Source: Rhodospirillaceae bacterium (lineage in GTDB: Bacteria > Pseudomonadota > Alphaproteobacteria > CACIAM-22H2). Taken from it: a stretch of 36,709 bases of DNA. Below the pieces are notes generated by a model. It had not been told where the DNA came from, made no database searches, and saw nothing but the letters and a program-made list of their open reading frames with translations. Both the position numbers and the translations under genes were made by a program. Below, piece after piece: positions 4,901 through 36,709 of this stretch (positions are counted from its first letter, which is position 1; each line of letters begins with the position of its first letter). The stretch is taken from the NCBI GenBank assembly GCA_022843945.1, contig JALHMR010000046.1:1-36709 (forward strand), given 5' to 3'.

Positions 4901-5650
4901 GTGAGCCGTCGGGGGGCGCCGCTGATCGGCCTGCCGGCCTGCGTCATCGATTCATCTGCGTACACCTGGCACTCGGTGGCCGAGCAATACATCCGCGCGG
5001 TCGTTGCCGCCGGCGGCGCGCCGGTGATCCTGCCCTCGATCGGCGACGCAACCGATGCCGCGCGCCTGGTCGAGCGGCTCGACGGCATCATGCTGACTGG
5101 CAGCTCCTCCAATGTGGAGCCTGCCCGCTACGGCGGGCCGGCGTCGCGCGAGGGCACCAAGCACGACGCCAAGCGTGACGCAACAACCCTGCCGCTCATC
5201 CGCACCGTGCTCGACGCCGGCATGCCGCTCTTCGCCATCTGCCGCGGCCACCAGGAGCTCAACGTGGCGCTCGGCGGCACGCTTCACCAGAACGTCCAGG
5301 AGCTGCCGGGCAAACACGATCACCGCGCGCCCCGCGACCAGCCCCACGCCATCCGCTATGCGCCCGTGCACACCGTCGAGCTCGCCGGCACGCTCGGCGC
5401 GCTGGCCGGCGCCTCAGTCGCCAGGGTCAATTCGCTGCACGCCCAGGCCATCGATCGCCTGGCGCCCGGCCTGGTCACCGAGGCCGTCTCGGACGACGGC
5501 GTAATCGAAGCCGTGCGGGTCGACGGCGCAAAGCGGTTCGCCGTCGGCGTGCAGTGGCATCCCGAATGGATGGTCGAGACCGATGCCCTGTCGAAGGCTT
5601 TGTTCTCCGGCTTCACCGACGCGGCCCGCGACTACGCCGCGCGAAAATAA
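4901..5650 (+). CDS. Gamma-glutamyl-gamma-aminobutyrate hydrolase family protein (peptidase C26)
   Basis: Class I glutamine amidotransferase-like hydrolase of the PuuD type, expected to cleave gamma-glutamyl amides. It has 249 residues, normal for the family. The nucleophile is Cys114 in AICRGHQELNV; His220 and Glu222 in GVQWHPEW complete the triad. The GTG start at 4901 directly follows the lolA stop. The substrate cannot be read from sequence: no putrescine or GABA pathway genes are adjacent, so gamma-glutamyl-GABA is only the family default. Confidence 0.88.
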   Translation: MSRRGAPLIGLPACVIDSSAYTWHSVAEQYIRAVVAAGGAPVILPSIGDATDAARLVERLDGIMLTGSSSNVEPARYGGPASREGTKHDAKRDATTLPLIRTVLDAGMPLFAICRGHQELNVALGGTLHQNVQELPGKHDHRAPRDQPHAIRYAPVHTVELAGTLGALAGASVARVNSLHAQAIDRLAPGLVTEAVSDDGVIEAVRVDGAKRFAVGVQWHPEWMVETDALSKALFSGFTDAARDYAARK

Positions 5651-5668
5651 TCACGGGACGTCTTCGGC

Positions 5669-6649
5669 TTGTCGGTCTTCCGTTCCATCCCTGCTGGGCG
5701 CGCCGATCTGATCCCGGTCAGCGGGCACGCCGGCCTGCGACTCAATCTCTATCGTTTGCGTCCGCACCAGGCCCAGGCGCCGGTCGTGCTCTTCGGTCAT
5801 GCCTGCGGTTTTGCCGCGGGATCCTACCTGCCGCTCTTCGATCGCCTCGGCGCGGAAATGGACGTGCTGGCCTATGATGCGCGCGGCCATGGCGGCAGCG
5901 ACGTGCCGCCGCCCGATGGCGACACCTACACCGCGGAAAGCTACGCCCTCGATCTGGCAGCCCTGGGCGCGGCTGCCGCCACCATCGCCGCCGGACGTCC
6001 GCTTTATTTCGTCGGTCATTCGCTCAACGCGGCGGCGATGCTGCGGCTCGGCGGCTGCCACCCCGACCGGCTGCGCTCGATCGGATTTCGCGGGCTTCTG
6101 CTGTTCGAGCCGCCGGTCTTTCCCTCTGCCGACCGGCCGGAGCATACGGAATGCCGGGAGAAGGACACGAAACTGATCGCCCGCACGCTCAATCGTCGTG
6201 ACCGCTTCGCCGGTCCCGACGACCTCGTGGCCTTGCTGACCGGCCGCGGCCTGTTTCGCCACCTCGCCCCCGAATTCCTCCAGGCCCATGCGCAGGCGAC
6301 CTTGCGCCCGGCCGGTGAGGGTGTGGTGCTCGCCTGTCCGCCCGCTGTCGAATCAGCGACCTTCGCGGCCTTCGGCGAGGACTCCACCTTCCAGCGGCTT
6401 GGCGGCTTTCCCGCCGAGCTGCCGGTTCATCTGATCGGCGGCGATCCCGACAGCGGCCCCGACCGCAACTGGACCACGATCATGGCTCCGGTGCTCGCCG
6501 AACGGCTCGCCTCGGCCACCGGCGCCGCGCCCCTCAAGCGCTTCACCCAGCTACCCGGGCGCGGCCATCTGATGGTTCAGGAAGACCCGGCTACCACCCA
6601 CCGGCTGATCCGCGAACTTCTACAAAGCCCTGATTCGGCTACTCAATAA
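5669..6649 (+). CDS. Alpha/beta hydrolase
   Basis: 326-residue cytoplasmic alpha/beta-hydrolase-fold enzyme with no signal peptide. Seen are an early oxyanion region (FGHACGFAAGSY), the strand-4 motif DARGHGGSD, the nucleophile elbow GHSLN with Ser118 (usually GHSxG), and the catalytic His in PGRGHLMVQ near the C-terminus. The start is the TTG at 5669; no better in-frame ATG is found nearby. It lies 18 nt after the previous stop in the same direction. Substrate unknown. Confidence 0.85.
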   Translation: MSVFRSIPAGRADLIPVSGHAGLRLNLYRLRPHQAQAPVVLFGHACGFAAGSYLPLFDRLGAEMDVLAYDARGHGGSDVPPPDGDTYTAESYALDLAALGAAAATIAAGRPLYFVGHSLNAAAMLRLGGCHPDRLRSIGFRGLLLFEPPVFPSADRPEHTECREKDTKLIARTLNRRDRFAGPDDLVALLTGRGLFRHLAPEFLQAHAQATLRPAGEGVVLACPPAVESATFAAFGEDSTFQRLGGFPAELPVHLIGGDPDSGPDRNWTTIMAPVLAERLASATGAAPLKRFTQLPGRGHLMVQEDPATTHRLIRELLQSPDSATQ

Positions 6650-9566: not shown

Positions 9567-10859
9567 TTGGCCGGGCAAAACACTCAAGGTGAGCGCGCAA
9601 ATCGCGCGGGCAATGGCGGCTCGCGCGTGCTCATCTACAGCCACGACACGATGGGCCTTGGCCATCTCCGGCGCTGCCGGGCGATTGCCCACGCCCTGGT
9701 GGAGCGCGACAAGGACCTCTCGGTCCTCATCCTGTCCGGCTCCCCGATCATCGGCAGCTTCGATTTCAAGGCGCGCGTCGACTTCGTCCGCATGCCCGGC
9801 GTCATCAAGCTGCGCAACGGCGAATACACCTCGCTCAACCTGCATATCGACATCACCGAGACGCTCAAGATCCGCGCCTCGATCATCCGCCATACCGCGG
9901 AGGCTTTCCGCCCCGACCTGTTCCTGGTCGACAAGGAGCCGCTGGGCCTGCGCGGTGAGGTTTCGGAAACGCTGCACTATCTAAAGAGCCGCGGCGTGCC
10001 GCTGGTCCTGGGCCTGCGCGACGTGATGGACGACCCCTCGCTGCTCGAACCCGAATGGCGCCGCAAGAAAGCCTTGCCGGCCCTGCGCGACCTCTACGAC
10101 GACATCTGGATCTACGGCCTGCCGCAGATCTGCGAGCCGCTGGCCGGGCTTTCGGTGCCCCGCCACGTCCAGAAAAAGATCAGCTTCACCGGCTACCTGA
10201 AGCGCTTCGAGGAGCCGACGGTACGCCGCAGCTCCTTCCCCGGGCAGCCGATCGAGCCCTATATCCTGGTCACCACGGGCGGCGGCGGCGATGGCGAAGC
10301 CCTGATCGACTGGGTGCTGCGGGCCTATGAATTCGCCCCTGACCTGCCGGCGCGCGCCCTGCTCGTCCTCGGCCCGTTCATGCAGCCCGAGCTCCAGGGC
10401 GACTTCCTGCGCCGGGCCGCCGCCCTGTCCAACGTCGAAGCGATCACCTTCGACGCACACCTCGAAGCCCTGATGGCGCGGGCGGTCGGCGTCGTCGCCA
10501 TGGGCGGCTACAACACGTTCTGCGAGATCCTGTCTTTCGATCAACGGGCGCTGATCGTCCCCCGCACCGCCCCGCGCCTGGAGCAGTTCATCCGCGCGCG
10601 CCAGGCGCAGGATCTCGGCCTGGTCTCGACCCTGGTCGACGACGGGGTCCGGGACGCCTCGGTGATGGCGGCGGCGTTGCGCCACCTGCCCAATCAGCGC
10701 CGGCCGTCGGAAGTCGTGGTTCCCGGCCTGCTCGACGGCCTCGACAACGTCGATCGCCTCGCCCGTCGATGGCTCGATCGGCCGGCCAGCGAGCGCAAGG
10801 CGGCGACCTCCCGGCGGCTTACCGTGGTCGGCGGCCAGCGCGCTTCCGGCAGCCGCTAG
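9567..10859 (+). CDS. Predicted glycosyltransferase, MurG/GT28-like (COG4671 type)
   Basis: 430-residue GT-B-fold enzyme. The N-terminal glycine loop is YSHDTMGLGHLRRCRAIAHA, typical of COG4671 predicted glycosyltransferases. The C-terminal nucleotide-sugar half has VTTGGGGDGE (about 232-241) and a MurG-like donor site (MGGYNTFCEILSF, then IVPRTAPRLEQFIRA). There are no membrane segments, so it should act on the cytoplasmic face. The start is a TTG at 9567 with GGGGGG about 8 nt upstream; the next ATG lies inside the glycine loop and is too late. It is the first gene of an operon reaching 22313. Its distant homologue is at 13878. Donor and acceptor unknown. Confidence 0.85.
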   Translation: MAGQNTQGERANRAGNGGSRVLIYSHDTMGLGHLRRCRAIAHALVERDKDLSVLILSGSPIIGSFDFKARVDFVRMPGVIKLRNGEYTSLNLHIDITETLKIRASIIRHTAEAFRPDLFLVDKEPLGLRGEVSETLHYLKSRGVPLVLGLRDVMDDPSLLEPEWRRKKALPALRDLYDDIWIYGLPQICEPLAGLSVPRHVQKKISFTGYLKRFEEPTVRRSSFPGQPIEPYILVTTGGGGDGEALIDWVLRAYEFAPDLPARALLVLGPFMQPELQGDFLRRAAALSNVEAITFDAHLEALMARAVGVVAMGGYNTFCEILSFDQRALIVPRTAPRLEQFIRARQAQDLGLVSTLVDDGVRDASVMAAALRHLPNQRRPSEVVVPGLLDGLDNVDRLARRWLDRPASERKAATSRRLTVVGGQRASGSR

Positions 10860-10894
10860 CAGCGTTTTTCCGCTGCGGGCGTTATAACGGCCGC

Positions 10895-12172
10895 ATGGCC
10901 GACAGCCTTCCCTGCCGCGAATCCAGGCCGCTTTCCGGCCACGTGGCCGTCGTGGTCAAGGGTTGGCCGCGCCTGTCCGAGACCTTCATCGCCCGCGAGC
11001 TCATCGGGCTGGAGCGGCGGGGGCTCCGCTTGCGGCTCTACTCGCTGCGGCATCCGACCGACCGCAAGGTTCATGCAAGCACGCGCGAACTGCGCGCCCC
11101 CGTCTCCTACCTGCCCGAATATCTCTGGCGCGAACCGGCGCGTGTTTGGCACGGCTGGCGGCAGGCACGGCGGCTGGCCGGGTACCGAGCGGCCCGCGCC
11201 TTGTGGCTGCGCGACCTGGCGCGCAACCCGACCCCCAACCGTGTGCGCCGCTTCGGCCAGGCGCTGGTCCTCGCCGCCGAGCTGCCGGCGGATGTCGGCC
11301 ATCTCTACGCCCATTTCCTGCATACGCCGGCTTCGGTCGCCCGCTATGCGGCGACGCTGCGCGGCCTGACCTGGAGCGTGTCGGCGCACGCCAAGGACAT
11401 CTGGACCACGCCCGCCTGGGAGACGATCGAGAAGCTCGGCGAGGCCGCCTGGGCGGTGACCTGCACCGGCGCCGGCCATGCGCACCTCGCCGGCCTCGCG
11501 CGGCCAGGCACGGTCCACCTGGTCCATCACGGTCTCATCGTCCCTGCGGATATCCCGCGGCGGCCGCCGCGGGACGGAAGCGACGCGAACGATCCGGTGC
11601 GCCTGCTGTCCGTCGGGCGGGCTGTCCCCAAGAAAGGCTTCGATGATCTGCTGACGGCGCTGGCGCGCCTGCCGGAGGCCTGTGCCTGGCGGCTCACCCA
11701 TATCGGCGGCGGCCCGCTGCTCAGCGACCTCAAACGCCAGGCGGGGCAACTCGGCATCGGCGGGCGCATCGACTGGCGCGGTGCCGGTGACGAGGACGAG
11801 GTCCGCGCCGCCTATCGCGAGGCCGATCTGTTCGCGCTCGCCAGCCGGGTCGAGCCGAACGGCGACCGCGACGGTATCCCCAACGTGCTCGTCGAGGCGA
11901 TGAGTCATGGGTTGCCGGTGGTCGCGACCGTCGCCGGAGCCATACCCGAGATCGTCACACGGGAGACCGGCGTGCTGGTGCCATCCGGCGATCCGGCGAT
12001 CCTTGCCGAGGCTCTCGCGGCGCTGATTGCCGATCCGGCGCGGCGTATCGCGCTGGGCGCCGCCGGCGCCGCCCGGGTGCGGCATGACTTCCCCGCCGCG
12101 CGCGGGTTCGACCGCATTGCGGAACTGCTTCAGTCCACGGCCGCATGCGCCTCGCCTTCTACGCACCGCTGA
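10895..12172 (+). CDS. Glycosyltransferase family 4 (colanic-acid WcaL-like)
   Basis: 425 residues, GT-B fold. The N-terminal half starts VAVVVKGWPRLSETFIARE, a pattern seen in WcaL-type exopolysaccharide glycosyltransferases. The C-terminal half has LLSVGRAVPKKGFDDLL (phosphate-binding region), then EPNGDRDGIPNVLVEAMSHG, the retaining-GT4 E-x7-E type motif. I start at the ATG at 10895, since upstream residues in frame overlap the preceding gene. It begins 35 nt after the previous stop and overlaps the next gene by 28 nt. Confidence 0.88.
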   Translation: MADSLPCRESRPLSGHVAVVVKGWPRLSETFIARELIGLERRGLRLRLYSLRHPTDRKVHASTRELRAPVSYLPEYLWREPARVWHGWRQARRLAGYRAARALWLRDLARNPTPNRVRRFGQALVLAAELPADVGHLYAHFLHTPASVARYAATLRGLTWSVSAHAKDIWTTPAWETIEKLGEAAWAVTCTGAGHAHLAGLARPGTVHLVHHGLIVPADIPRRPPRDGSDANDPVRLLSVGRAVPKKGFDDLLTALARLPEACAWRLTHIGGGPLLSDLKRQAGQLGIGGRIDWRGAGDEDEVRAAYREADLFALASRVEPNGDRDGIPNVLVEAMSHGLPVVATVAGAIPEIVTRETGVLVPSGDPAILAEALAALIADPARRIALGAAGAARVRHDFPAARGFDRIAELLQSTAACASPSTHR

Positions 12173-27730: not shown

Positions 27731-28411
27731 CTAGTGCGCCGGCCGCTCGCCGAAAATCGCCGTGCCGATGCGAATGTCAGTCGCGCCACAGCGGATCGCC
27801 GTCTCGAAATCGGCGCTCATTCCCATGCTCAGCCGCTCGAGACCATGACGCGTCGCAATCCCGCGCAGCATGTCGAAATGCGGCGCCGGAGAGTCCGCGG
27901 CGGGCGGGATGCACATCAGGCCGATGACCGGCAATCCGGCGCGTTCGCGGCAATAGGCGATGAAGGCATCGGCCTCGGCCGGCAGCACGCCGGCCTTCTG
28001 CGGCTCCTGCCCGGTGTTGACCTGGATAAAGCAGTTCGGGCGGCGCCCCGCCTTGACCATGGCGGCCGCCAGGGCGTCGGCCAGCCGCGGACGATCGAGG
28101 CTGTGGATGGCGTCGAACAGCCGCACGGCATCCAGCGCCTTGTTTGTCTGCAGCGGGCCAATCAGGTGAAGCGTCAGCTCGGGAAACGCAGCTTTGAGGG
28201 CCGGGAACTTGCCGGCGGCCTCCTGAACACGATTCTCGCCGAAGCAGCGCTGGCCGGCAGCTAGGGCTGCCTGTACCGATGCAGCGGGGTGCGTCTTGCT
28301 GACGGCGATCAGCTCGATGGCGGCGGGCTCGCGCCCGGCTTCGTGGGCAATGCGGGCGATGCGAGCCCGCAGGGAGGCGAGGTTCTGAGCGATCGAGGAG
28401 TCGGCCGGCAC
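27731..28411 (-). CDS. YggS family PLP-binding protein (PLP homeostasis)
   Basis: 226-residue alanine-racemase-like TIM barrel that buffers pyridoxal phosphate. The PLP lysine is Lys39 in ELIAVSKTHP. Conserved are FGENRVQEA, LHLIGPLQTNK, NCFIQVNTGQEPQKAG, LSMGMSADFETAI and RIGTAIFGER. The ATG at 28453 lies only 8 nt past a terminator hairpin and has no binding site, so I prefer GTG 28411, which gives the normal family length. A PLP-dependent partner is not nearby. Confidence 0.92.
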   Translation of the reverse strand: MPADSSIAQNLASLRARIARIAHEAGREPAAIELIAVSKTHPAASVQAALAAGQRCFGENRVQEAAGKFPALKAAFPELTLHLIGPLQTNKALDAVRLFDAIHSLDRPRLADALAAAMVKAGRRPNCFIQVNTGQEPQKAGVLPAEADAFIAYCRERAGLPVIGLMCIPPAADSPAPHFDMLRGIATRHGLERLSMGMSADFETAIRCGATDIRIGTAIFGERPAH

Positions 28412-28461
28412 GCCCGACTCTTTAGCACCCCGGCCGACGGGCGCACATGCCAAAGAAAAAA

Positions 28462-28507: not shown

Positions 28508-29740
28508 TTAGAAGCTCAGGACCACGCCACCGAGAACGCCGGTGGCCTTGTTGTTGTCGACGTCCTGACCGCCGGAGCTGGTCGTGCCTTCGCCGGTGAT
28601 CTTGGCGTAGAAGCCAGTCGCCAGCAGCTGCACGCCCGGCCCGAGGGTGTAACGGCCGGTGACCGAGAAGATCTTCGACTTGTCGTCGCCGGTGTTGACC
28701 GTCGAGGCCTTGTTCTTGCCCTGGAAGTAGGTGACGCCCACTTCGGCCGGGCCGAACGTGTAGGTCAAACCGAGGTCCCAAGCGCGACCGTCGTTGACAT
28801 AATCGTTCACGCCGGTTGCGCCGGTGGTGCTCACGTCGACCGAAGCCACCGTGCCGCCCAGCGTGTAACCGTCCTTGAACTTCGTGTACGAACCACCGAG
28901 GCGGAACCCGGCATAGGCAACCTGCGCGCCGACGCCGTAAGCCTTGGGATCCTTCTTGGTCGCACCGTTGGCGAAGTCCGGCGAGTCCATCGTGACGTAG
29001 CCGGCATAAGCCGCGGTGTCGAACGCGCCGAACGAACGCGTGAAGTTCAAACCAGCCGAGAGTGCGTTCTTGTAGCGGTTCGACTCGTACTTCACCAGGT
29101 GACCGGAGTCTTCGCGGACCTCAGGGGTGTAGCTCAGACCGAGCTGGAAGCCCTCGAAGCGCGGGGTGTAGTACGAAACGCGCTCGGAGTCGTTGTCACC
29201 GAAGCGCAGCCAGGAGCTGCCGAACGGGCCATCAGCGCCCGACGACTTGGTCGGGTTCTGGATGGTGTTGCCGATCATCGTCGCCTGGTTGGTGAAGCCC
29301 GGGCCGCGGTTCGCGAGGTCGGGCGCGCCGATCTTCGTCTTCATCGCGGCGTGGTCGGTCGAGCCGAGCTCGATACGGCCGAACGCGCCTTCGATCGCGA
29401 CAAACGATTCGTCGATGGTGTCGCTCGAGGTGTAGGCCTCGAGTTCGATGCGCATCGCCACCGAGATGCCGTTTGCCAGGGTGGTCTTACCCTGGAACCA
29501 GATCTCAGCGTCGTTGACGAGGTTCATCTTGTGAGTCTTGGACGTGACCGTCGCCGACAGCGGGCTGGCGCCCACCACGCGGTCGTCCTGGTCAGCATAC
29601 TGCAGCGACTGCTGCGTATAACCGCCGACCGTAACCTGGATCGGCTGGCTCGCAGGAGCCGTTTGAGCGATCGCCGTGCCGGACGCAGCAATCATGCCGG
29701 CCGCCACCAGCGCGCTCGTGGATAGTAGTTGTTTCTTCAT
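28508..29740 (-). CDS. General porin (Gram-negative porin family)
   Basis: 410-residue outer-membrane beta barrel, probably a trimeric general diffusion pore. The signal peptide is MKKQLLSTSALVAAGMIAAS with cleavage after AIA. Typical strands: TVGGYTQQSLQYADQDD, ISVAMRIELEAYTSSDTIDE, FGRIELGSTDHAAMK, WLRFGDNDSERVSYYTPRFE (a loop-3-like stretch), ending VLGGVVLSF with terminal Phe. GGAGAGGG precedes the ATG. It has its own terminator and a structured leader, fitting a highly expressed gene. Codon use is strongly biased to a few codons, also consistent with high expression. Confidence 0.94.
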   Translation of the reverse strand: MKKQLLSTSALVAAGMIAASGTAIAQTAPASQPIQVTVGGYTQQSLQYADQDDRVVGASPLSATVTSKTHKMNLVNDAEIWFQGKTTLANGISVAMRIELEAYTSSDTIDESFVAIEGAFGRIELGSTDHAAMKTKIGAPDLANRGPGFTNQATMIGNTIQNPTKSSGADGPFGSSWLRFGDNDSERVSYYTPRFEGFQLGLSYTPEVREDSGHLVKYESNRYKNALSAGLNFTRSFGAFDTAAYAGYVTMDSPDFANGATKKDPKAYGVGAQVAYAGFRLGGSYTKFKDGYTLGGTVASVDVSTTGATGVNDYVNDGRAWDLGLTYTFGPAEVGVTYFQGKNKASTVNTGDDKSKIFSVTGRYTLGPGVQLLATGFYAKITGEGTTSSGGQDVDNNKATGVLGGVVLSF

Positions 29741-30142: not shown

Positions 30143-30697
30143 ATGATGACGAATTTTGCGGGCCGACTTGCCCCGTGGCGGAAGGCGGCAGTGGGACTGG
30201 GCCTCATCCTGGCCATGGGAGCGTGTTCGAGCGCCAATGTCGAGCACCAGTATCCGGAGAAGACCGGGGACAGCACCTACAAGCAGTCCGGCACCGCCCG
30301 CGACACCGTATTCGGCGCGGACGGATTGAACCTGTTCGGTAGAGGAAAGCAGAACGATCCCGGTGCGACCGGTATCGGCGTGAACAGCTATCTGTGGCGC
30401 GCGTCCCTCGATGCGATCTCCTTCATGCCCCTAGCCTCGGCCGATCCGTTCGGCGGCGTGATCATCACCGACTGGTACGCGCCCCCCGAGACCCCCAACG
30501 AACGCTTCAAGCTCAACATCTACATCCTCGGCCGGCAGTTACGCGCCGATGGCGTGAAGGCCGCCGTGTTCCGCCAGCGCCGGGACGCCGGTGGCAACTG
30601 GACCGACGCCGCGGTCGAAGGCCGCACGTCGCTCGATCTGGAAAACGTCATTTTGACACGGGCCCGCCAGCTGCGAATCGACTCAGAACGGCCCTGA
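30143..30697 (+). CDS. DUF3576 lipoprotein
   Basis: 184-residue envelope protein. A signal peptide with lipobox-like end (GLILAMGAC, Cys28; Met at -3 is unusual) is followed by the conserved DUF3576 body: GIGVNSYLWRASLDAISFMP, ADPFGGVIITDWYAPPETPN, NIYILGRQLRADGVKAAVF. GCAGG lies 6 nt before ATG 30143; ATG 30137 and 30146 are alternatives. In many alphaproteobacteria this family sits upstream of leuS and lptE; here it is followed instead by the convergent OGT-like gene, with a 15-nt overlap of the coding ends. Function unknown, probably outer-membrane assembly related. Confidence 0.88.
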   Translation: MMTNFAGRLAPWRKAAVGLGLILAMGACSSANVEHQYPEKTGDSTYKQSGTARDTVFGADGLNLFGRGKQNDPGATGIGVNSYLWRASLDAISFMPLASADPFGGVIITDWYAPPETPNERFKLNIYILGRQLRADGVKAAVFRQRRDAGGNWTDAAVEGRTSLDLENVILTRARQLRIDSERP

Positions 30698-32998
30698 AGC
30701 CGCCGATCTATCGCGGCTCTCCGCACCGGCGCCGCCCCACCAGTGAAGCCACATGGCCCGGAGCAGGCGCTCAAATTGCCGTGCCCGCAATCGCCCGTCG
30801 CACAAAGACGATGACGCCAGCCGGTCGCGCAAGCCGGCGCGAAGCTCCGCCAGCCGCGGCAGGTCCATGGCGAGTCGACTTGCGGCGGTTACGTAAGCGT
30901 CGGGCGTCTCAGCAACCAGTTCGCTCAATTTGAGCGCGCGTAGTATCGAGGCCGACCACCGCGACACCATGCGCGTTCCGCTCAGCGTCACCACGGGAAG
31001 CCCCATCCACAGCGATTCGAATGTCGTTGTCGATCCGGTGAACGGCGATGTATCGAGCGCCATATCGACACGCGAAAATATATCGAGCTGTCTTCCGCTC
31101 CCGGCCTCGGCCGTGATGAATTCAATTCGCTCTCGAGCCACACCTTCGATCGCGAGGCGATCGACAATGCGGCTCTGTAAAATCCGCGAGCCGTAGAAGT
31201 TGCGATAGCGCAGCAGCATTCGGGACCCCGGCACGGCCGCCAGAGTCTTGCCCCACAGCGCCAGGCAATCGTCGCCGATCTTGGTTGGATTGTTGAAGCT
31301 CCCAAACGTCACATAGCCGTTTCTGGAGGCTGGCAAAGGCCCGACCGGCGGAGCGCCGGCGAGGGGAGCATGTATATAGTACCGAGGCAGTCGGACGACG
31401 CGCTCGACGAAGCGCTCGGTCGTGCCGCGTGGCGTGAGATCCGAATCACCAATGAGGAAGTCCATGGCTGCGATCCCGCTGGTCGCCGGATCGTGAAAAC
31501 TGACCTGCACGGGAGCCGCCCGGTGCAAGGCGATGGTTGGTCGATTCCTCTCTAACCCGGCCGCCAGGAAGAGCAATACATCGATCCGGTCACGCCGGAT
31601 GACCGCTGCCGCATCACTATCGTCGAGATCCACAAGCGAATGCCAGCCATCGGCTTGCCGGCGAAATTCATCTGCCAAGTCATCGGACTCTGGCGACGTC
31701 GGATAGACGAATACTTCGAAAGCCCGCCGGTTATGGTTGGCGAATACGGGAAAAAGATTTCGCCCGACCGGATGATGATAGAGATCGGAAGAGACGTAAC
31801 CGATCCTGAGACGCGTCGACGCCGTGGCGGGTGGGTCGAAATGCCGTTCGCGTGAGGCGGTCTTACCGACCAGGCCCATGTAGCGACGGCAGTCTTCAAA
31901 TCGACGGCGCTCATCGTCCTGGCTGCCGTAGAGCTGGCCGGCGCGAAGGTACCGATGAAAGGTCGCCGAATCGGTATCAAGGGCGATGGCCCGTCGGTAC
32001 GTATCGGACGCGACCTTGTGAAAGCCGAGGTCGTCCAGCACCATCGCCCGGTAGGCATGAGCCTCCGCGTCCTGTGGTTTCAGCCGCAGAACCGCGCCGA
32101 ACGATTCGAGGCTCTCATCGAGCTGGCCAAGCCGGTGCAGAACCATGCCGAGATTGTTGTGCAGATCGGCAGAGTCGGGACGGAGACAGATCGCACGCCG
32201 AACAGCATCCAACGCCGCCCTGAGATTGCCGGCCTTTTCTTGCGCCTGTCCAAGATTCACAAGCCCTTCGACATAGTCTGGCCGCAACTCAACCGCTCTG
32301 GAACAATGCCGCAAGGCCTCGGCCAAAAAGCCCGGCTTGCCGGAGAGCGCGAATCCCAGGTTGCTGTGGGCTTCGGCGAAATCGGGGCGTAGCGCGATGG
32401 CCCGCTCGTAGGCGGCGATGGCCTCGTCCAGCGCGCCGGCCGCCTTCAGCGCGTTGCCGAGATTGCTGTAGGCCTCGGCGTAGTCGGGTTTCGCGGCAAT
32501 CGCCTGGCGCAGCGCCGCCACCGCCTCGGAGGCCTGGCCCAGGCCGCTCAGCGTCACGCCCAGCCCGAGCTGCGCCTCGGCATAGCCGGGCTGCAGCGCC
32601 ACGGCGCGGCGGTAGCAATCGAGCGCCTCGGGCAATCGCCCCAGCTCGCGCAGCGTCTGGCCGAGATTCTTCAGCGCCACCGGGTAGTCCGGCTGCAGCG
32701 CCAGCGCCCGACGATAGCTCCCGACCGCCGCCTCGCGCTTGCCCTGTTCGGCCTGGTTGTTGGCCAGGTTGTTCCAGGCCCGCGCCTGCTTCGGCTGCAG
32801 CACGGTCAGCCGCGCGAACAGCGTTTCGGCTTCCGCCGCGCGCCCCTGTTGCTGCACCGCCACCGCCAGCAGGCCCAGCGCATCGGGCTGATCGGCGATC
32901 TGCGTCAGCACCCGCCGGCACGCCGCCTCCGCCGCCGCCAGCCGTCCCGCCTGGTAGTGCCCAACAGCCTCCGTCCACGCCACTGGCGGCCCGCTCAT
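30683..32998 (-). CDS. TPR protein with SPINDLY/O-GlcNAc-transferase-like domain (third of three)
   Basis: 771 residues. About ten TPR units (residues 10-350, each near 34 residues, for example AWNNLANNQAEQGKREAAV) form a superhelix for protein binding. The GT41-like half has LRIGYVSSDLYHHPVG, whose second His matches the OGT catalytic-base position, FGSFNNPTKIGDDCLALW with the donor-phosphate Lys, and LDTSPFTGSTTTFESLWMG. Expected role: transfer of a sugar to Ser/Thr of cytoplasmic proteins. ATG 32998 overlaps the upstream stop by ATGA. The last TPRs and catalytic half differ more from the two upstream paralogues than these do from each other. Confidence 0.87.
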   Translation of the reverse strand: MSGPPVAWTEAVGHYQAGRLAAAEAACRRVLTQIADQPDALGLLAVAVQQQGRAAEAETLFARLTVLQPKQARAWNNLANNQAEQGKREAAVGSYRRALALQPDYPVALKNLGQTLRELGRLPEALDCYRRAVALQPGYAEAQLGLGVTLSGLGQASEAVAALRQAIAAKPDYAEAYSNLGNALKAAGALDEAIAAYERAIALRPDFAEAHSNLGFALSGKPGFLAEALRHCSRAVELRPDYVEGLVNLGQAQEKAGNLRAALDAVRRAICLRPDSADLHNNLGMVLHRLGQLDESLESFGAVLRLKPQDAEAHAYRAMVLDDLGFHKVASDTYRRAIALDTDSATFHRYLRAGQLYGSQDDERRRFEDCRRYMGLVGKTASRERHFDPPATASTRLRIGYVSSDLYHHPVGRNLFPVFANHNRRAFEVFVYPTSPESDDLADEFRRQADGWHSLVDLDDSDAAAVIRRDRIDVLLFLAAGLERNRPTIALHRAAPVQVSFHDPATSGIAAMDFLIGDSDLTPRGTTERFVERVVRLPRYYIHAPLAGAPPVGPLPASRNGYVTFGSFNNPTKIGDDCLALWGKTLAAVPGSRMLLRYRNFYGSRILQSRIVDRLAIEGVARERIEFITAEAGSGRQLDIFSRVDMALDTSPFTGSTTTFESLWMGLPVVTLSGTRMVSRWSASILRALKLSELVAETPDAYVTAASRLAMDLPRLAELRAGLRDRLASSSLCDGRLRARQFERLLRAMWLHWWGGAGAESRDRSAASGPF
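32356..32469 (-). repeat. 114-nt block identical to 36596-36709
   Basis: Every base matches the block at the window end, at an offset of 4240. It codes for part of two TPR units (LGNALKAAGALDEAIAAYER and following). Sequence beyond position 32356 diverges at once. Confidence 0.95.
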
Positions 32999-35166
32999 GA
33001 CGACCCCGCGCACCAGCGGCGCCATATGGTGCGGTAGGCATCCTCAACGGCGCGGGTGTAGCGCACCGGATCGCCGGCCACGGAACCGGCGACTTGGCCG
33101 CGCAAAGTCGCCCGCAGCCGCGCCAGCGCTTCGCGATCGCGCGCCTTGTCGATCGCCAAGCTCACATACGCCTCGGCATCAACGGCCACCCATTCATTCA
33201 ATCCGACGGCAGAGAGGATAGCCGCCGAAAGACGGCTTGCCGCATTCGGGCCCTCGGGCGACACGACCGGAACACCCATCCACAACGTTTCGTAGGTCGT
33301 GATGCCGCCCGAGTTGGGGAAAGGATCGAGAGCGATGTCGATCTCCCCGTAGGCACGAAGATGATCCACGTGCGGCGTACCTCCCCGAAGCAGAACGCGC
33401 TCTGGAGCGACGCCGTTGCGCAGGAGAGCGTTCAGGATCTGCCGTTGCGTGGCAGCATCATCGAGAGCCCGATCCTTCAGCATCAGACACGAGCCGGGAA
33501 CGGCCTCGAGAATTCGCGCCCATACAGAAAGCGCTACTTCGGTGACCTTGGCTAACCGATTAAGGCATCCGAACGTGACTGCATCTCGATCCAGTCTTGA
33601 TAAGGAATCGACAGCTGGCGCATAGGAGGGCGCCTCGTAGGTGATCACGCAGGGCAAATCATAGATTTTCTCCGCGAACAGACGCCTTACCTCTTGCGGC
33701 ACGAAGGTGGGGTCGGCGAAAAAATAGTCCATCGTCGCCAGGCCGCTTCCGGTTGCGTGGCCCCAAGCCGTGACTTGTACCGGCGCCGGCTTGTACGCAA
33801 AGGCCAGCAGCCGGTTGCCGCGGGAATGGCCGGAGAGATCGACAAGAATGTCGATGCCATCCGACCGGATCATGTCACATAGCGCCTGATCGGGAATACG
33901 CAGCGTACTGCGCCACAGCGCGGCACTGTCCCGCAGCAGCGTGGTGACATCGTCTTCAATTTCCGTCCCGGAGTAGCAGACGATCTCCACCGCCGCAGGG
34001 TCATGATGCCGGAGGATCGGACCAAAGCAGGCCGATGCAGAGTGCCGTCGGAAATCCGCCGATACATAACCGATCCGCAGGCGCCGGTCCGGTTCTCGCG
34101 CATTGGCATGGTGCAGGCTGGGACGAAGGTGTTTTCCATGCCGCCCGTACCAGGCGCGTCGTTCCGCCTGCTGCTCGGCAAATGCAGCACCCGGCATAAG
34201 GTCGAGGGCAAAAATCAGATTGCTGTGCGCGGTGGAGAATGTCGGATCAAGGTCAACGGCGTGACGAAAATGCGCGACCGCCTCTTCGATGCGGCCCTGG
34301 GTCATCCGCTCGCCGCCGAGGTTGTTCCAGGCGCCCGCCAGGCCGGGTGCCAAGTCTATGGCTTTTTGGAAGTAGGCGGCGGCCTCGTCAAGCTGCCCCT
34401 GGGTCTGCAGGAGCGAGCCCATGTTGTTCCAGGCTTCGGCGGAGGAGCCGTCCAGTTCGATGGACCGTTGCAGGCACTGCGTGGCGTCGCCGAGCCTTCC
34501 CAGGTCGTGGAGAGCGTTGCCCAGGTTGTTCCAGGCCGCGGCATAGGTGGGACGAGCCGTCACCGCGTGTCGGAAGCTGGCGACGGCCTCGTCGAGCCGT
34601 CCCTGCCGCATCAACGCGTCACCCAGGCGATTGTGTATCTCCGGAGCGGCGACGAGGACAAGCGCCGTGCGAAAGGCCGAAGCGGCTTCCGCCCAGCGAT
34701 CGAGACGGCCGAGGAGGTCACCAATCTTCACATGGGTGGGCATGTATTGCGGCTGCAAGTCTGCCGATCGCCGAAGACTTTCAAGCGCTGCCTCGAGCTG
34801 CCCCTTATCCTCGAGGATCAGGCCGAGATTGAAATGAGCGTCCGCCTGCTTCGCATCCAGCGCCAAAGCCCGATGCAGGCACGCTTCGGCTTCATCGAGG
34901 CGCCGCTGCGCACGAAGCACGAGGCCGAGGTTCGCGTGATAGGCGGGATTGTCGGGGCTGCGATCGATGGCGCGGCGGATATGGATTTCGGCCGCGGGCG
35001 CATCGCCCCGCTGGTGCAGCACTACCCCTAAAAGATGCGAGGCCTCGGCGTGCTGCGGATCCCGGCGCAATAATTCGAGATAGACGGCTTCGGCTTCGCC
35101 GAGGCGGCCGGCCTGGTGATGCAAAAGGGCCTCGGACACGAGCGCGGCAACGGCCGTATCCGTCAC
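32995..35166 (-). CDS. TPR protein with SPINDLY/O-GlcNAc-transferase-like domain (second of three)
   Basis: 723 residues. About nine TPRs (residues 1-310) precede the linker SNLIFALDLMPG. The GT41-like part begins LRIGYVSADFRRHSASACFG (His in the OGT base position), then VDLSGHSRGNRLLAFAYKPA, FGCLNRLAKVTEVALSVW (Lys of the donor site), and LDPFPNSGGITTYETLWMG. The GTG start at 35166 overlaps the upstream TGA by 4 nt; a longer frame to 35196 only runs into the upstream gene. Closely related to the gene at 35163. Soluble and cytoplasmic. Confidence 0.9.
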   Translation of the reverse strand: MTDTAVAALVSEALLHHQAGRLGEAEAVYLELLRRDPQHAEASHLLGVVLHQRGDAPAAEIHIRRAIDRSPDNPAYHANLGLVLRAQRRLDEAEACLHRALALDAKQADAHFNLGLILEDKGQLEAALESLRRSADLQPQYMPTHVKIGDLLGRLDRWAEAASAFRTALVLVAAPEIHNRLGDALMRQGRLDEAVASFRHAVTARPTYAAAWNNLGNALHDLGRLGDATQCLQRSIELDGSSAEAWNNMGSLLQTQGQLDEAAAYFQKAIDLAPGLAGAWNNLGGERMTQGRIEEAVAHFRHAVDLDPTFSTAHSNLIFALDLMPGAAFAEQQAERRAWYGRHGKHLRPSLHHANAREPDRRLRIGYVSADFRRHSASACFGPILRHHDPAAVEIVCYSGTEIEDDVTTLLRDSAALWRSTLRIPDQALCDMIRSDGIDILVDLSGHSRGNRLLAFAYKPAPVQVTAWGHATGSGLATMDYFFADPTFVPQEVRRLFAEKIYDLPCVITYEAPSYAPAVDSLSRLDRDAVTFGCLNRLAKVTEVALSVWARILEAVPGSCLMLKDRALDDAATQRQILNALLRNGVAPERVLLRGGTPHVDHLRAYGEIDIALDPFPNSGGITTYETLWMGVPVVSPEGPNAASRLSAAILSAVGLNEWVAVDAEAYVSLAIDKARDREALARLRATLRGQVAGSVAGDPVRYTRAVEDAYRTIWRRWCAGSS
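33009..33045 (-). repeat. 37-nt repeat at the 3' end of two tandem paralogues
   Basis: Identical to 35180-35216. It encodes the shared C-terminus EDAYRTIWRRWC of the second and first gene of the triplet. Confidence 0.93.
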
Positions 35167-36709
35167 GGGCGGTCCCCCACGCACCAGCGGCGCCATATGG
35201 TGCGGTAGGCATCCTCGACGGCGCGAGTGTAGCGGATAGGATCGCCAGCCACGGAACCGGCGACCTGGGCGCGTAAGGTCGTCCGCAGCCGCGCCAACTC
35301 TTCATGGTCGCCCGCCTTGCCGACCGCCAGGTCGGCGTACCTGTCCTCGTCCGCAGTGACCCAATCCCGCAGCCCCACGGCATGCAGGATGGCACCGGCG
35401 ACCCGGCTTGAACCGCTGTCGCCCGTCATCGCCACCACCGGCACGCCCATCCACAGCGCATCGTAAGTGCTGATGCCGCCGTTCTGCGGAAACGGATCGA
35501 GTGCGATGTCGATTTCGCTGAAAGCCTGGAGATGGTCGCGCTGTGGCGTCCCGCCCTTGAGCACGATGCGCTCTTCGGCAACACCATGTCGCGTAAGCGA
35601 CCCGTTCACGTAGGCACGGGCCGTCTCGTCACTCAGCGCGCCGTCTTTCAGCATCAAGCGCGAGCCGGGAACAGCGTGGAGAATGCGTGCCCACAGCGCC
35701 AGGACCGGCTCGGTCACCTTGGCCAGCCGGTTGAAGCAGCCGAAGGTGATGGCGCCACGCTCCAGGGCCGGGAGAGGCGCCACCGCCGGCGCGTCGGAGG
35801 GGGCCTCATACGTAATCAGGCACGGCAGATCATAGATCGTCTCGGCAAAGAGCGAACGCATCGAAACAGGAATATGCACCGGATCGCTGAATAGATAATC
35901 GATCGTCGCCAGGCCGGTTCCGTTCGCATGACCCCACGCCGTGATCTGCACTGGCGCCGGCTTGCGTGCAAAAGTCAGCAGACGATTCCCACCGGAGTGC
36001 CCGGACAGGTCCACCAGGATATCGATCGCGTCTTTGCGTATCTGCTCTGCCAGGGCTTCGTCGGTCATGCCGAGGGTCGGCCGCCAGAGATCAGCCCGGC
36101 TGCGAAATTCCTGCGTGAGATCGTCCTCGACGGCGACTCCCGAATAGCAGGCCACCGCGAACCGCTCACGGTCGTGGCGGCGGAGCAGGGGTCCGAAGCA
36201 ATAGGCCGCCGAGTGCCTCTTGAAATCGGCCGACACGTAGCCGATCCGCAGACGGCGCTCCGGATCGGCCGTGTTCGAGTAGTGCGCGCCGCCCACGGGC
36301 GCAAATCGTGCCGCATGCTTTTCCCCCCAGCGGCGGCGCTCACTCTGCTGCTCGTCGAACCCGACACCCGGCAAGAGATCGAGGGCGAAGATAAGGTTGC
36401 TGTGAGCGACAACGAATGAGTCGTCGATGGCCAATGCCCTACGCAATGCCACTACTGCTCCTTCGACGTCGCCAAGATCCTGGAGCACCAAGCCGAGATT
36501 GACGTATCCCTCGGCGTAGTCGGATCGGAGGTCGATGGCCATACGGCAATAGGCGAGAGCTTCCCGCAGTCGCTTTTTGTCTCGTAAGGCAAACGCCAGG
36601 TTGCTGTGGGCTTCGGCGAAATCGGGGCGTAGCGCGATGGCCCGCTCGTAGGCGGCGATGGCCTCGTCCAGCGCGCCGGCCGCCTTCAGCGCGTTGCCGA
36701 GATTGCTGT
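35163..36709 (-). CDS. TPR protein with SPINDLY/O-GlcNAc-transferase-like domain (first of three), 5' end outside window
   Basis: The frame is open past the first internal ATG (36542) to the window edge, and the residues there are TPR sequence, so the gene is cut by the edge. About three TPRs are visible, then SNLIFALDLLPG, LRIGYVSADFKRHSAAYCFG, VDLSGHSGGNRLLTFARKPA, FGCFNRLAKVTEPVLALW and LDPFPQNGGISTYDALWMG. The catalytic half is strikingly similar to the next gene, which points to tandem duplication. Its TGA overlaps the next GTG start. Confidence 0.9.
   Translation of the reverse strand, partial: SNLGNALKAAGALDEAIAAYERAIALRPDFAEAHSNLAFALRDKKRLREALAYCRMAIDLRSDYAEGYVNLGLVLQDLGDVEGAVVALRRALAIDDSFVVAHSNLIFALDLLPGVGFDEQQSERRRWGEKHAARFAPVGGAHYSNTADPERRLRIGYVSADFKRHSAAYCFGPLLRRHDRERFAVACYSGVAVEDDLTQEFRSRADLWRPTLGMTDEALAEQIRKDAIDILVDLSGHSGGNRLLTFARKPAPVQITAWGHANGTGLATIDYLFSDPVHIPVSMRSLFAETIYDLPCLITYEAPSDAPAVAPLPALERGAITFGCFNRLAKVTEPVLALWARILHAVPGSRLMLKDGALSDETARAYVNGSLTRHGVAEERIVLKGGTPQRDHLQAFSEIDIALDPFPQNGGISTYDALWMGVPVVAMTGDSGSSRVAGAILHAVGLRDWVTADEDRYADLAVGKAGDHEELARLRTTLRAQVAGSVAGDPIRYTRAVEDAYRTIWRRWCVGDRP
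36596..36709 (-). repeat. 114-nt block identical to 32356-32469
   Basis: The match continues to the last base of the window, so 114 nt is a minimum. Confidence 0.95.

What the first reader, a model, noticed from the sequence alone, without database searches (positions are those of the whole stretch)
32356..36709. Perfect 114-nt identity between TPR regions of the first and third gene
Positions 32356-32469 and 36596-36709 match base for base although the flanking TPRs diverge immediately on the one side visible. Silent positions are identical too. This points to recent gene conversion or exchange of TPR modules, a way to change target choice. The middle gene lacks this block.
Basis: seen in the sequence. 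Interest (0 to 1): 0.6.

Follow-up and report, generated by a model that had tools for sequence, protein, structure and literature searches.

The report
Swapped TPR half between neighbouring enzymes
Two neighbouring sugar-transferring enzyme genes share a near-identical front half, most likely copied from one to the other, and the 114-base match is the edge of that shared stretch, visible because it stopped the genome assembly there.

Summary
The 114-nt identity is in the sequence (114/114), but its length is set by the assembly. The window is a complete contig (C46) of an 82-contig genome and ends exactly where the match ends. Of 158 contig ends tested, 32 finish in exact 103-119-nt repeats, peaking at 119 and 118: the mark of a k-mer assembler breaking at repeats. 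The far edge is at the start of contig C34: its first 103 nt equal 32721-32823 of gene 1, and its first 304 nt are 94% identical to gene 1's 5' end. Among the ends tested, C34's start and C46's end are the only GT41-coding ones left unpaired. They face each other, and the yggS-porin-GT41-leuS order of relatives fits the join. Gene 3 is therefore most likely a mosaic: a gene-1-like front (19 differences in 202 nt, then none in the 217 nt visible) on a gene-2-like back (catalytic identity 64% to gene 2, 36% to gene 1). 'Recent, perfect, 114 nt' is not: the outer part has diverged silent sites. Retargeting by the swapped TPRs is plausible but untested. This is segmental gene conversion, a known process, in a tandem TPR-glycosyltransferase cluster.

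The parts
30683..33025 (-). Gene 1: TPR array plus GT41 catalytic domain, 780 aa as called; the ATG at 33025 is CTG in the C34 copy, both have an ATG at codon 10 (32998), a likelier start
32995..35196 (-). Gene 2: TPR array plus GT41 domain, 733 aa; lacks the shared block; nearest paralog of gene 3's catalytic half
35163..36709 (-). Gene 3, 5' part missing because the contig ends; last TPRs plus GT41 domain
32356..32469 (-). 114-nt block, gene 1 copy (residues 187-223)
36596..36709 (-). 114-nt block, gene 3 copy, running to the contig end
32721..32823 (-). Second exact tract (103 nt), identical to C34:1-103
32356..33025 (-). Inferred whole shared tract of gene 1 and gene 3 (670 nt): outer 202 nt with 19 differences, 103 nt exact, about 251 nt unseen in gene 3, 114 nt exact
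   Evidence: the 251-nt middle is inferred
28508..29740 (-). Porin (Porin_4), synteny anchor
27731..28453 (-). yggS-type gene (Ala_racemase_N), synteny anchor; leuS, the anchor on the other side, is on C34:6492-9092

Best explanation
Six tandem TPR-GT41 glycosyltransferase genes lie between yggS/porin and leuS, split over contigs C46 (the window) and C34. The front half of gene 3 (about residues 1-223, several TPRs) was made the same as that of gene 1 by homologous exchange within the tandem array, most simply gene conversion. The catalytic half of gene 3 stayed of the gene-2 type. A long exact repeat resulted that short reads could not resolve, so the assembler carried gene 1's copy through and stopped gene 3 on both sides: 114 nt in at C46's end and 103 nt in at C34's start. 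Shown: the exact matches, the contig ends, the diverged outer part, the discordant halves, the synteny in relatives. Inferred: the C46-C34 join, identity across the ~251-nt gap, conversion rather than another kind of exchange, its direction. Likely function (inferred): cytoplasmic protein O-glycosyltransferases whose TPR half binds the target; a swapped TPR half would give two different catalytic domains one docking surface.
For: Exact block, abrupt edge. Window is a whole contig. Contig ends in 103-119-nt exact repeats: 32 of 158 tested (one low-complexity end left out of the 32), 13 at 119 and 14 at 118, against 1 of 2000 interior points at 100 nt or more; repeat-broken contigs carry ends of maxK or maxK-1 (PMC10914622, passages). 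C34 start matches gene 1's 5' end: 103 nt exact, 304 nt at 94%. Of 158 ends only C34 start, C46 end, C58 start and C77 end match GT41 proteins, and C58 start and C77 end overlap each other by 119 nt. yggS and leuS in one stretch in 18 of 20 relatives examined, GT41 genes between them in 8 of those 18. Discordant halves: gene 3's catalytic part is nearest gene 2 among all 17 GT41 genes (65%; gene 1 35%; 64% and 36%); gene 1's is nearest C58b (54%) and C34b (52%); the C34 piece is 95% identical to gene 1 and at most 42% to any of 11 other paralogs and 30% to C14; the whole-genome DNA search with gene 1's 5' part finds only C34:1-304 and the C46 end at 94% or more over 100 nt or more.
Against: The two ends reach 114 and 103 nt into the repeat, not the 119 or 118 that most breaks give here; even ends whose partner is inside their own contig (C26, C81) show 119. 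Unexplained: coverage loss, strain variation or trimming could do it. Nothing was read across the gap, so a further gene copy between C46 and C34 is possible. Six of 164 contig ends were not tested. In 20 comparable loci with two or more GT41 frames only 1 (G055) had an exact inter-GT41 repeat of 100 nt or more, and that in the catalytic half, so such exchange is not common.
Confidence: 0.75

Rival explanations
1. Assembly artefact: the last ~114 bases of C46 (and first ~103 of C34) are gene-1 sequence wrongly attached to gene 3, which in reality differs there.
For: The match ends exactly at the contig end; 114 and 103 are not the standard overlaps of this assembly; the exact parts are just the contig-end parts, while the same gene pair differs at 9% further out.
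Against: With about 9% divergence throughout, no long shared word would exist and the assembler would have had no reason to break at both places; the break itself argues for a real long exact repeat. The 304-nt 94% match on C34 goes beyond anything a contig-end error would bring in.
Confidence: 0.12
2. C34's cut gene and the window's gene 3 are two different genes, with one or more further GT41 genes with the same front half between them, missing from the assembly.
For: The gap was not read; the smallest contig of the assembly is 6567 b, so short contigs may have been dropped; relatives carry 0 to 5 GT41 genes in this interval.
Against: Only two unpaired GT41-coding ends remain among 158 tested and one gene satisfies both; more genes need extra missing sequence.
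Confidence: 0.15
3. Unequal crossing-over or duplication of a whole gene followed by divergence of the back half, rather than gene conversion.
For: Direct tandem repeats favour unequal crossing-over; I could not test reciprocity.
Against: A duplicated neighbour expected next to the hybrid is not seen: the gene upstream of gene 3 on C34 (C34a) is not a close copy of gene 2 (35% and 65% catalytic identity to gene 3). Divergence of only the back half to 36% while the front stays at 94-100% is hard to reconcile with one duplication.
Confidence: 0.2
4. Convergence or strong selection on a consensus TPR unit, no exchange.
For: TPR units are alike by nature.
Against: Silent sites are identical over the visible 217 nt, while gene 2 and the other paralogs share at most 22 of 36 residues of the block.
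Confidence: 0.01

Closest known systems
FlmG of Caulobacter crescentus (PMC7591256; outline with abstract, section 10 and passages seen)
   Same: TPR N-terminal half plus GT-B C-terminal half; other GT41 genes of this genome sit beside flagellins (C77, C81) and FlgK (C58)
   Different: The window's cluster lies between yggS/porin and leuS; no flagellin in the window or the first 20 kb of C34 (tblastn); substrate unknown; 17 GT41 genes in this genome (my gene count from the places)
Human OGT and plant SPINDLY (GT41; PDB 7ntf, 7y4i)
   Same: Same domain order; phmmer E 7.7e-108 and 3.3e-106 for gene 2; the histidine and lysine aligned with OGT's catalytic pair are kept (residue roles recalled)
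   Different: Bacterial, multi-copy, tandem; sugar donor unknown
Gene conversion between bacterial paralogs, e.g. a PE_PGRS pair (PMC1762029, start of abstract in the listing); concerted evolution in prokaryotes (PMC6053082, abstract)
   Same: Segmental homogenisation between paralogs in one genome
   Different: Here confined to the TPR half of a glycosyltransferase; only one genome seen
Domain movement in restriction specificity subunits (PMC3077401, abstract)
   Same: Recognition modules move between genes by recombination
   Different: There shown by comparing alleles within species; here no second strain is available
Repeat-induced contig breaks (COBRA, PMC10914622, passages)
   Same: Contig ends share maxK or maxK-1 bases; in this assembly peaks at 119 and 118
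   Different: The C46 and C34 ends share 114 and 103 nt with an interior copy

Membership tests
GT41 (OGT-like) TPR glycosyltransferases | TPR array followed by a Glyco_transf_41 domain above cut-off | tested here: met
   Genes 1-3: PF13844 131.4, 163.6 and 157.9 bits, cut-off 25; TPR families above cut-off in each
GT41 (OGT-like) TPR glycosyltransferases | Catalytic histidine and lysine positions (roles recalled from OGT) | tested here: met
   Both columns conserved in genes 1, 2 and 3; gene 2 aligned to human OGT
FlmG-type flagellin glycosyltransferase | TPR half binds flagellin; flagellin is modified | not testable with these tools
   Needs two-hybrid and mutant work
FlmG-type flagellin glycosyltransferase | Genes lie with flagellar genes (supporting, not defining) | tested here: not met
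   Flanked by yggS/porin and leuS; no flagellin hit in the window or C34:1-20000, positive control C81 found. Paralogs on C77, C81 and C58 do lie by flagellar genes
Gene conversion between paralogs | Tract far more similar than its flanks, with an abrupt edge | tested here: met
   100% over 114 nt, then 20-60% per 30 nt beyond the edge in either of two registers
Gene conversion between paralogs | Discordant nearest paralogs inside and outside the tract | tested here: met
   Pairwise identities, no tree built
Gene conversion between paralogs | Unconverted state in a close relative; non-reciprocal transfer | tested here: inconclusive
   Only one other genome of the genus is held; its best match to gene 3's catalytic half is 40% identical
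k-mer assembly break at a repeat | Contig end exactly in a repeat, of the assembler's k or k-1 | tested here: inconclusive
   The end lies in an exact repeat, but 114 and 103 nt rather than 119 or 118

The most novel reading that the evidence does not exclude
The yggS-leuS interval of this bacterial family is a fast-evolving tandem array in which TPR halves and catalytic halves of GT41 enzymes are reshuffled by recombination. Each new pairing would put a different glycosyltransferase on a given docking surface: a natural combinatorial system for protein O-glycosylation. Hints: the mosaic here; a second genome of the family (G006) whose contig in the same interval also starts in 106 nt shared exactly with the N-terminal TPR region of the adjacent GT41 gene; and a genome of the same class (G055) where two adjacent GT41 genes share 545 nt exactly, in the catalytic half instead.
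Probability: 0.13. Interest if true: 0.6.

Novelty: new member of a known kind. Interest (0 to 1): 0.32.

Why it matters
As it stands it is a worked example of two things. An exact repeat that ends at a contig end must be read as an assembly edge first. And tandem TPR-glycosyltransferases can exchange their presumed substrate-binding half independently of the catalytic half. If retargeting by TPR exchange were shown, it would bear on how cytoplasmic O-glycosylation acquires its specificity, which the FlmG paper calls poorly understood (PMC7591256, abstract and section 10).

Tried and rejected
Rejected: a repeat confined to 114 nt (second exact tract and 94% tract on C34); pure TPR convergence (silent sites); gene 2 as donor of the block. 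The G056 (149 nt exact) and G005:C2 (103 nt exact) repeats first looked like the same thing. The G056 repeat lies between flagellin-like frames, the G005 repeat looks like a flagellin 3' end at a contig end, both read by eye, and neither is between GT41 frames, so both were dropped as parallels.

Led nowhere: the single genome-contig scan gave relatives of at most 52% identity, too far to date the exchange. Genus search: one other genome, best match 40%. A TPR regular expression on contig ends matched nothing, not even C46's own end, so it was useless and was replaced by tblastn. In NCBIfam no equivalog model reached its cut-off for genes 1-3; only a TPR domain model (NF047558) did, in genes 1 and 2. 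Direction of transfer is unsettled: gene 1's N-terminal TPRs score highest against C65, a gene-3-type enzyme, which weakly suggests gene 3 as donor. Literature: by titles and abstract starts, the listings (3 of 4 shown; 10 of 10; 11 of 11; 12 of 15) hold no paper on gene conversion between TPR-GT41 paralogs; that covers only the held library and those terms.

Limits: one search compared ends with 0.518 Mb held, about 10% of the genome, so 32 of 158 is a lower bound; 53 of 158 ends had a match of 20 nt or more (24 of 2000 interior points did). Its interior control was drawn from the 18 contigs held whole, with the match required to end at the point, while ends were allowed up to 10 bases. Searches used 13 of the genome's 17 GT41 genes; C14, C16 and C37 were added; C31 only. 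In one search, 3 of 60 loci were dropped as covered by longer stretches, and stop-to-stop frames stand for genes. The probabilities assume a uniform rate and a tract chosen after the fact.
Full report
OBSERVATION. Window 32356-32469 and 36596-36709 are identical over 114 of 114 bases, and the bases to the left differ at once. A search of the genome (G000, 5.38 Mb, 82 contigs, 96.7% complete) finds no third full copy. The window is the entire contig C46, 36709 b, so the second copy runs to the end of the assembled sequence. The genes are on the minus strand: gene 1 30683-33025, gene 2 32995-35196, gene 3 35163-36709 with its start missing. All three are TPR arrays followed by a GT41 catalytic domain.

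THE CONTIG END. I compared 158 of the 164 contig ends with 0.518 Mb of the same genome. Thirty-two ends (one low-complexity end, C5 end, excluded) finish within 10 bases of an exact match of 103-119 nt elsewhere: 13 of exactly 119, 14 of 118, and five others (103, 111, 113, 114, 117). Among 2000 interior points one had a match of 100 nt or more. A published simulation study reports that contigs broken by repeats carry end sequences of maxK (metaSPAdes, MEGAHIT) or maxK-1 (IDBA_UD) (PMC10914622, passages). So this assembly most likely used a largest word of 119 or 120. An exact repeat that stops at a contig end is therefore what breaks contigs here, and the length seen says little about biology. 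The 114 (and 103, below) fall short of 119; why is not explained, and ends whose partner lies inside their own contig (C26, C81) do show 119.

THE FAR EDGE. Contig C34 begins with 103 bases identical to window 32721-32823, and its first 304 bases are 94% identical to 32721-33024, the 5' end of gene 1. C34 starts inside a minus-strand gene whose N-terminal part is present and whose remainder is cut off. C46 ends inside a minus-strand gene whose N-terminal part is missing. Three facts say these are one gene. (i) Among the 158 ends tested only four match GT41 proteins (C34 start, C46 end, C58 start, C77 end), and the C58 and C77 ends overlap each other by 119 nt. (ii) Orientation and TPR register agree. 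(iii) Gene order: C46 carries yggS and a porin on one side of its GT41 genes, C34 carries leuS on the other side of its three. I examined 20 of the 32 other genomes with a yggS match, chosen mainly for contig length (stretches). yggS and leuS lie in the same stretch in 18, and in 8 of those 18 one to five GT41 genes lie between them; the other 10 have none between. The two exceptions are G037 (no leuS in the 19 kb fetched) and G006 (the contig starts there). Nothing was read across the gap, so the join stays an inference.

WHAT THE TRACT LOOKS LIKE. From gene 1's called start to 32356 is 670 nt. In the outer 202 nt genes 1 and 3 (C34 piece) differ at 19 positions; 18 codons are changed, 11 silently. 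One of the changes is the called ATG itself; both copies have an ATG at codon 10, so the true start may be there. The next 103 nt and the last 114 nt have no difference. About 251 nt between them are unseen in gene 3. If the outer rate held throughout, zero differences in 217 nt would have probability 5e-10 (uniform rate, post hoc). The simplest reading is two layers: an older copying of the front half and a later, shorter one inside it. Past 32356 identity falls to 20-60% per 30 nt.

DISCORDANT HALVES. Over all 17 GT41 genes, gene 3's catalytic part is nearest gene 2 (65%), then C65 (58%) and C14 (52%); gene 1 is at 35% (64%, 59%, 52% and 36%). Gene 1's catalytic part is nearest C58b (54%) and C34b (52%) among the 12 others, with C14, C16 and C37 at 36-40%. 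Yet the C34 N-terminal piece is 95% identical to gene 1 and at most 42% to any of 11 other paralogs. These are pairwise identities; no tree was built. Gene 3 is most likely a mosaic.

MECHANISM AND FUNCTION. Homologous exchange in a head-to-tail array, most simply gene conversion, explains a tract bounded by the gene start and an internal edge without rearranging neighbours. Unequal crossing-over is a rival. Function is inferred: cytoplasmic O-glycosyltransferases. In Caulobacter the FlmG TPR half binds flagellins and is required for efficient glycosylation (PMC7591256, passages). The 17 GT41 genes of this genome (my count of genes from the places) include ones beside flagellins (C77, C81; Pfam), beside FlgK (C58), and on C65, whose other frames look flagellar by eye. 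No flagellin was found in the window or in the first 20 kb of C34 (tblastn). Genes 1-3 keep the histidine and lysine aligned with OGT's catalytic pair (roles recalled). If TPRs dock the substrate, genes 1 and 3 now dock alike while carrying different catalytic domains.

HOW UNUSUAL. Of 57 loci scanned, 20 have two or more GT41 frames. One (G055) has an exact inter-GT41 repeat of 100 nt or more: 545 nt, in the catalytic half, with unlike TPR halves; the next longest is 52 nt. In G006 a contig in the same yggS interval starts with 106 nt identical to the N-terminal TPR region of the adjacent GT41 gene; the rest of the cut gene is off the contig. Such exchange recurs but is not common in this sample, and short-read assemblies would hide it.

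VERDICT. Observation partly confirmed; exchange supported and enlarged; 'recent, perfect, 114 nt' is an assembly edge; target switching untested. Known kind of process, modest interest.

Noticed in passing
G000 contigs C14, C16, C31, C34, C37, C46, C58, C65, C77, C81: Seventeen GT41 TPR-glycosyltransferase genes in one 5.4-Mb genome (my count), several beside flagellin or other flagellar genes.
   Followed up: partly
L015 end and L155 start (C77 end, C58 start): These contigs overlap by exactly 119 nt inside a GT41 gene, so flagellins, several GT41 genes and FlgK form one flagellar locus split by the assembly.
   Followed up: partly
L274-L292, L227 (relatives): yggS and leuS lie close together in 18 of 20 relatives, with 0 to 5 GT41 genes between them and usually a porin: it looks like a hotspot of GT41 gain and loss.
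   Followed up: partly
L292:1-106 and 2268-2373 (genome G006): Another contig that starts exactly in a repeat shared with the N-terminal TPR region of an adjacent GT41 gene.
   Followed up: partly
L271:2850-3692 and 5126-5968 (genome G055): Adjacent GT41 genes 96% identical over 844 nt of the catalytic half (545 nt exact) but unlike in the TPR half, in a two-contig genome.
   Followed up: partly
L270:7257-9518 and 9743-12002 (genome G056): Tandem flagellin-like genes 93% identical over 2263 nt (label by eye).
   Followed up: no
window 33009-33045 and 35180-35216: The gene 2/gene 1 and gene 3/gene 2 junctions share a 37-nt exact repeat and the genes overlap (31 and 34 nt as called; about 4 nt at the first junction if gene 1 starts at codon 10), which suggests translational coupling.
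   Followed up: no
G000 contig ends in exact 118-nt matches (e.g. C3/C41, C67/C68): Pairs of contig ends overlap by roughly 120-230 nt with mismatches, which looks like strain variation in a metagenome-derived assembly.
   Followed up: no
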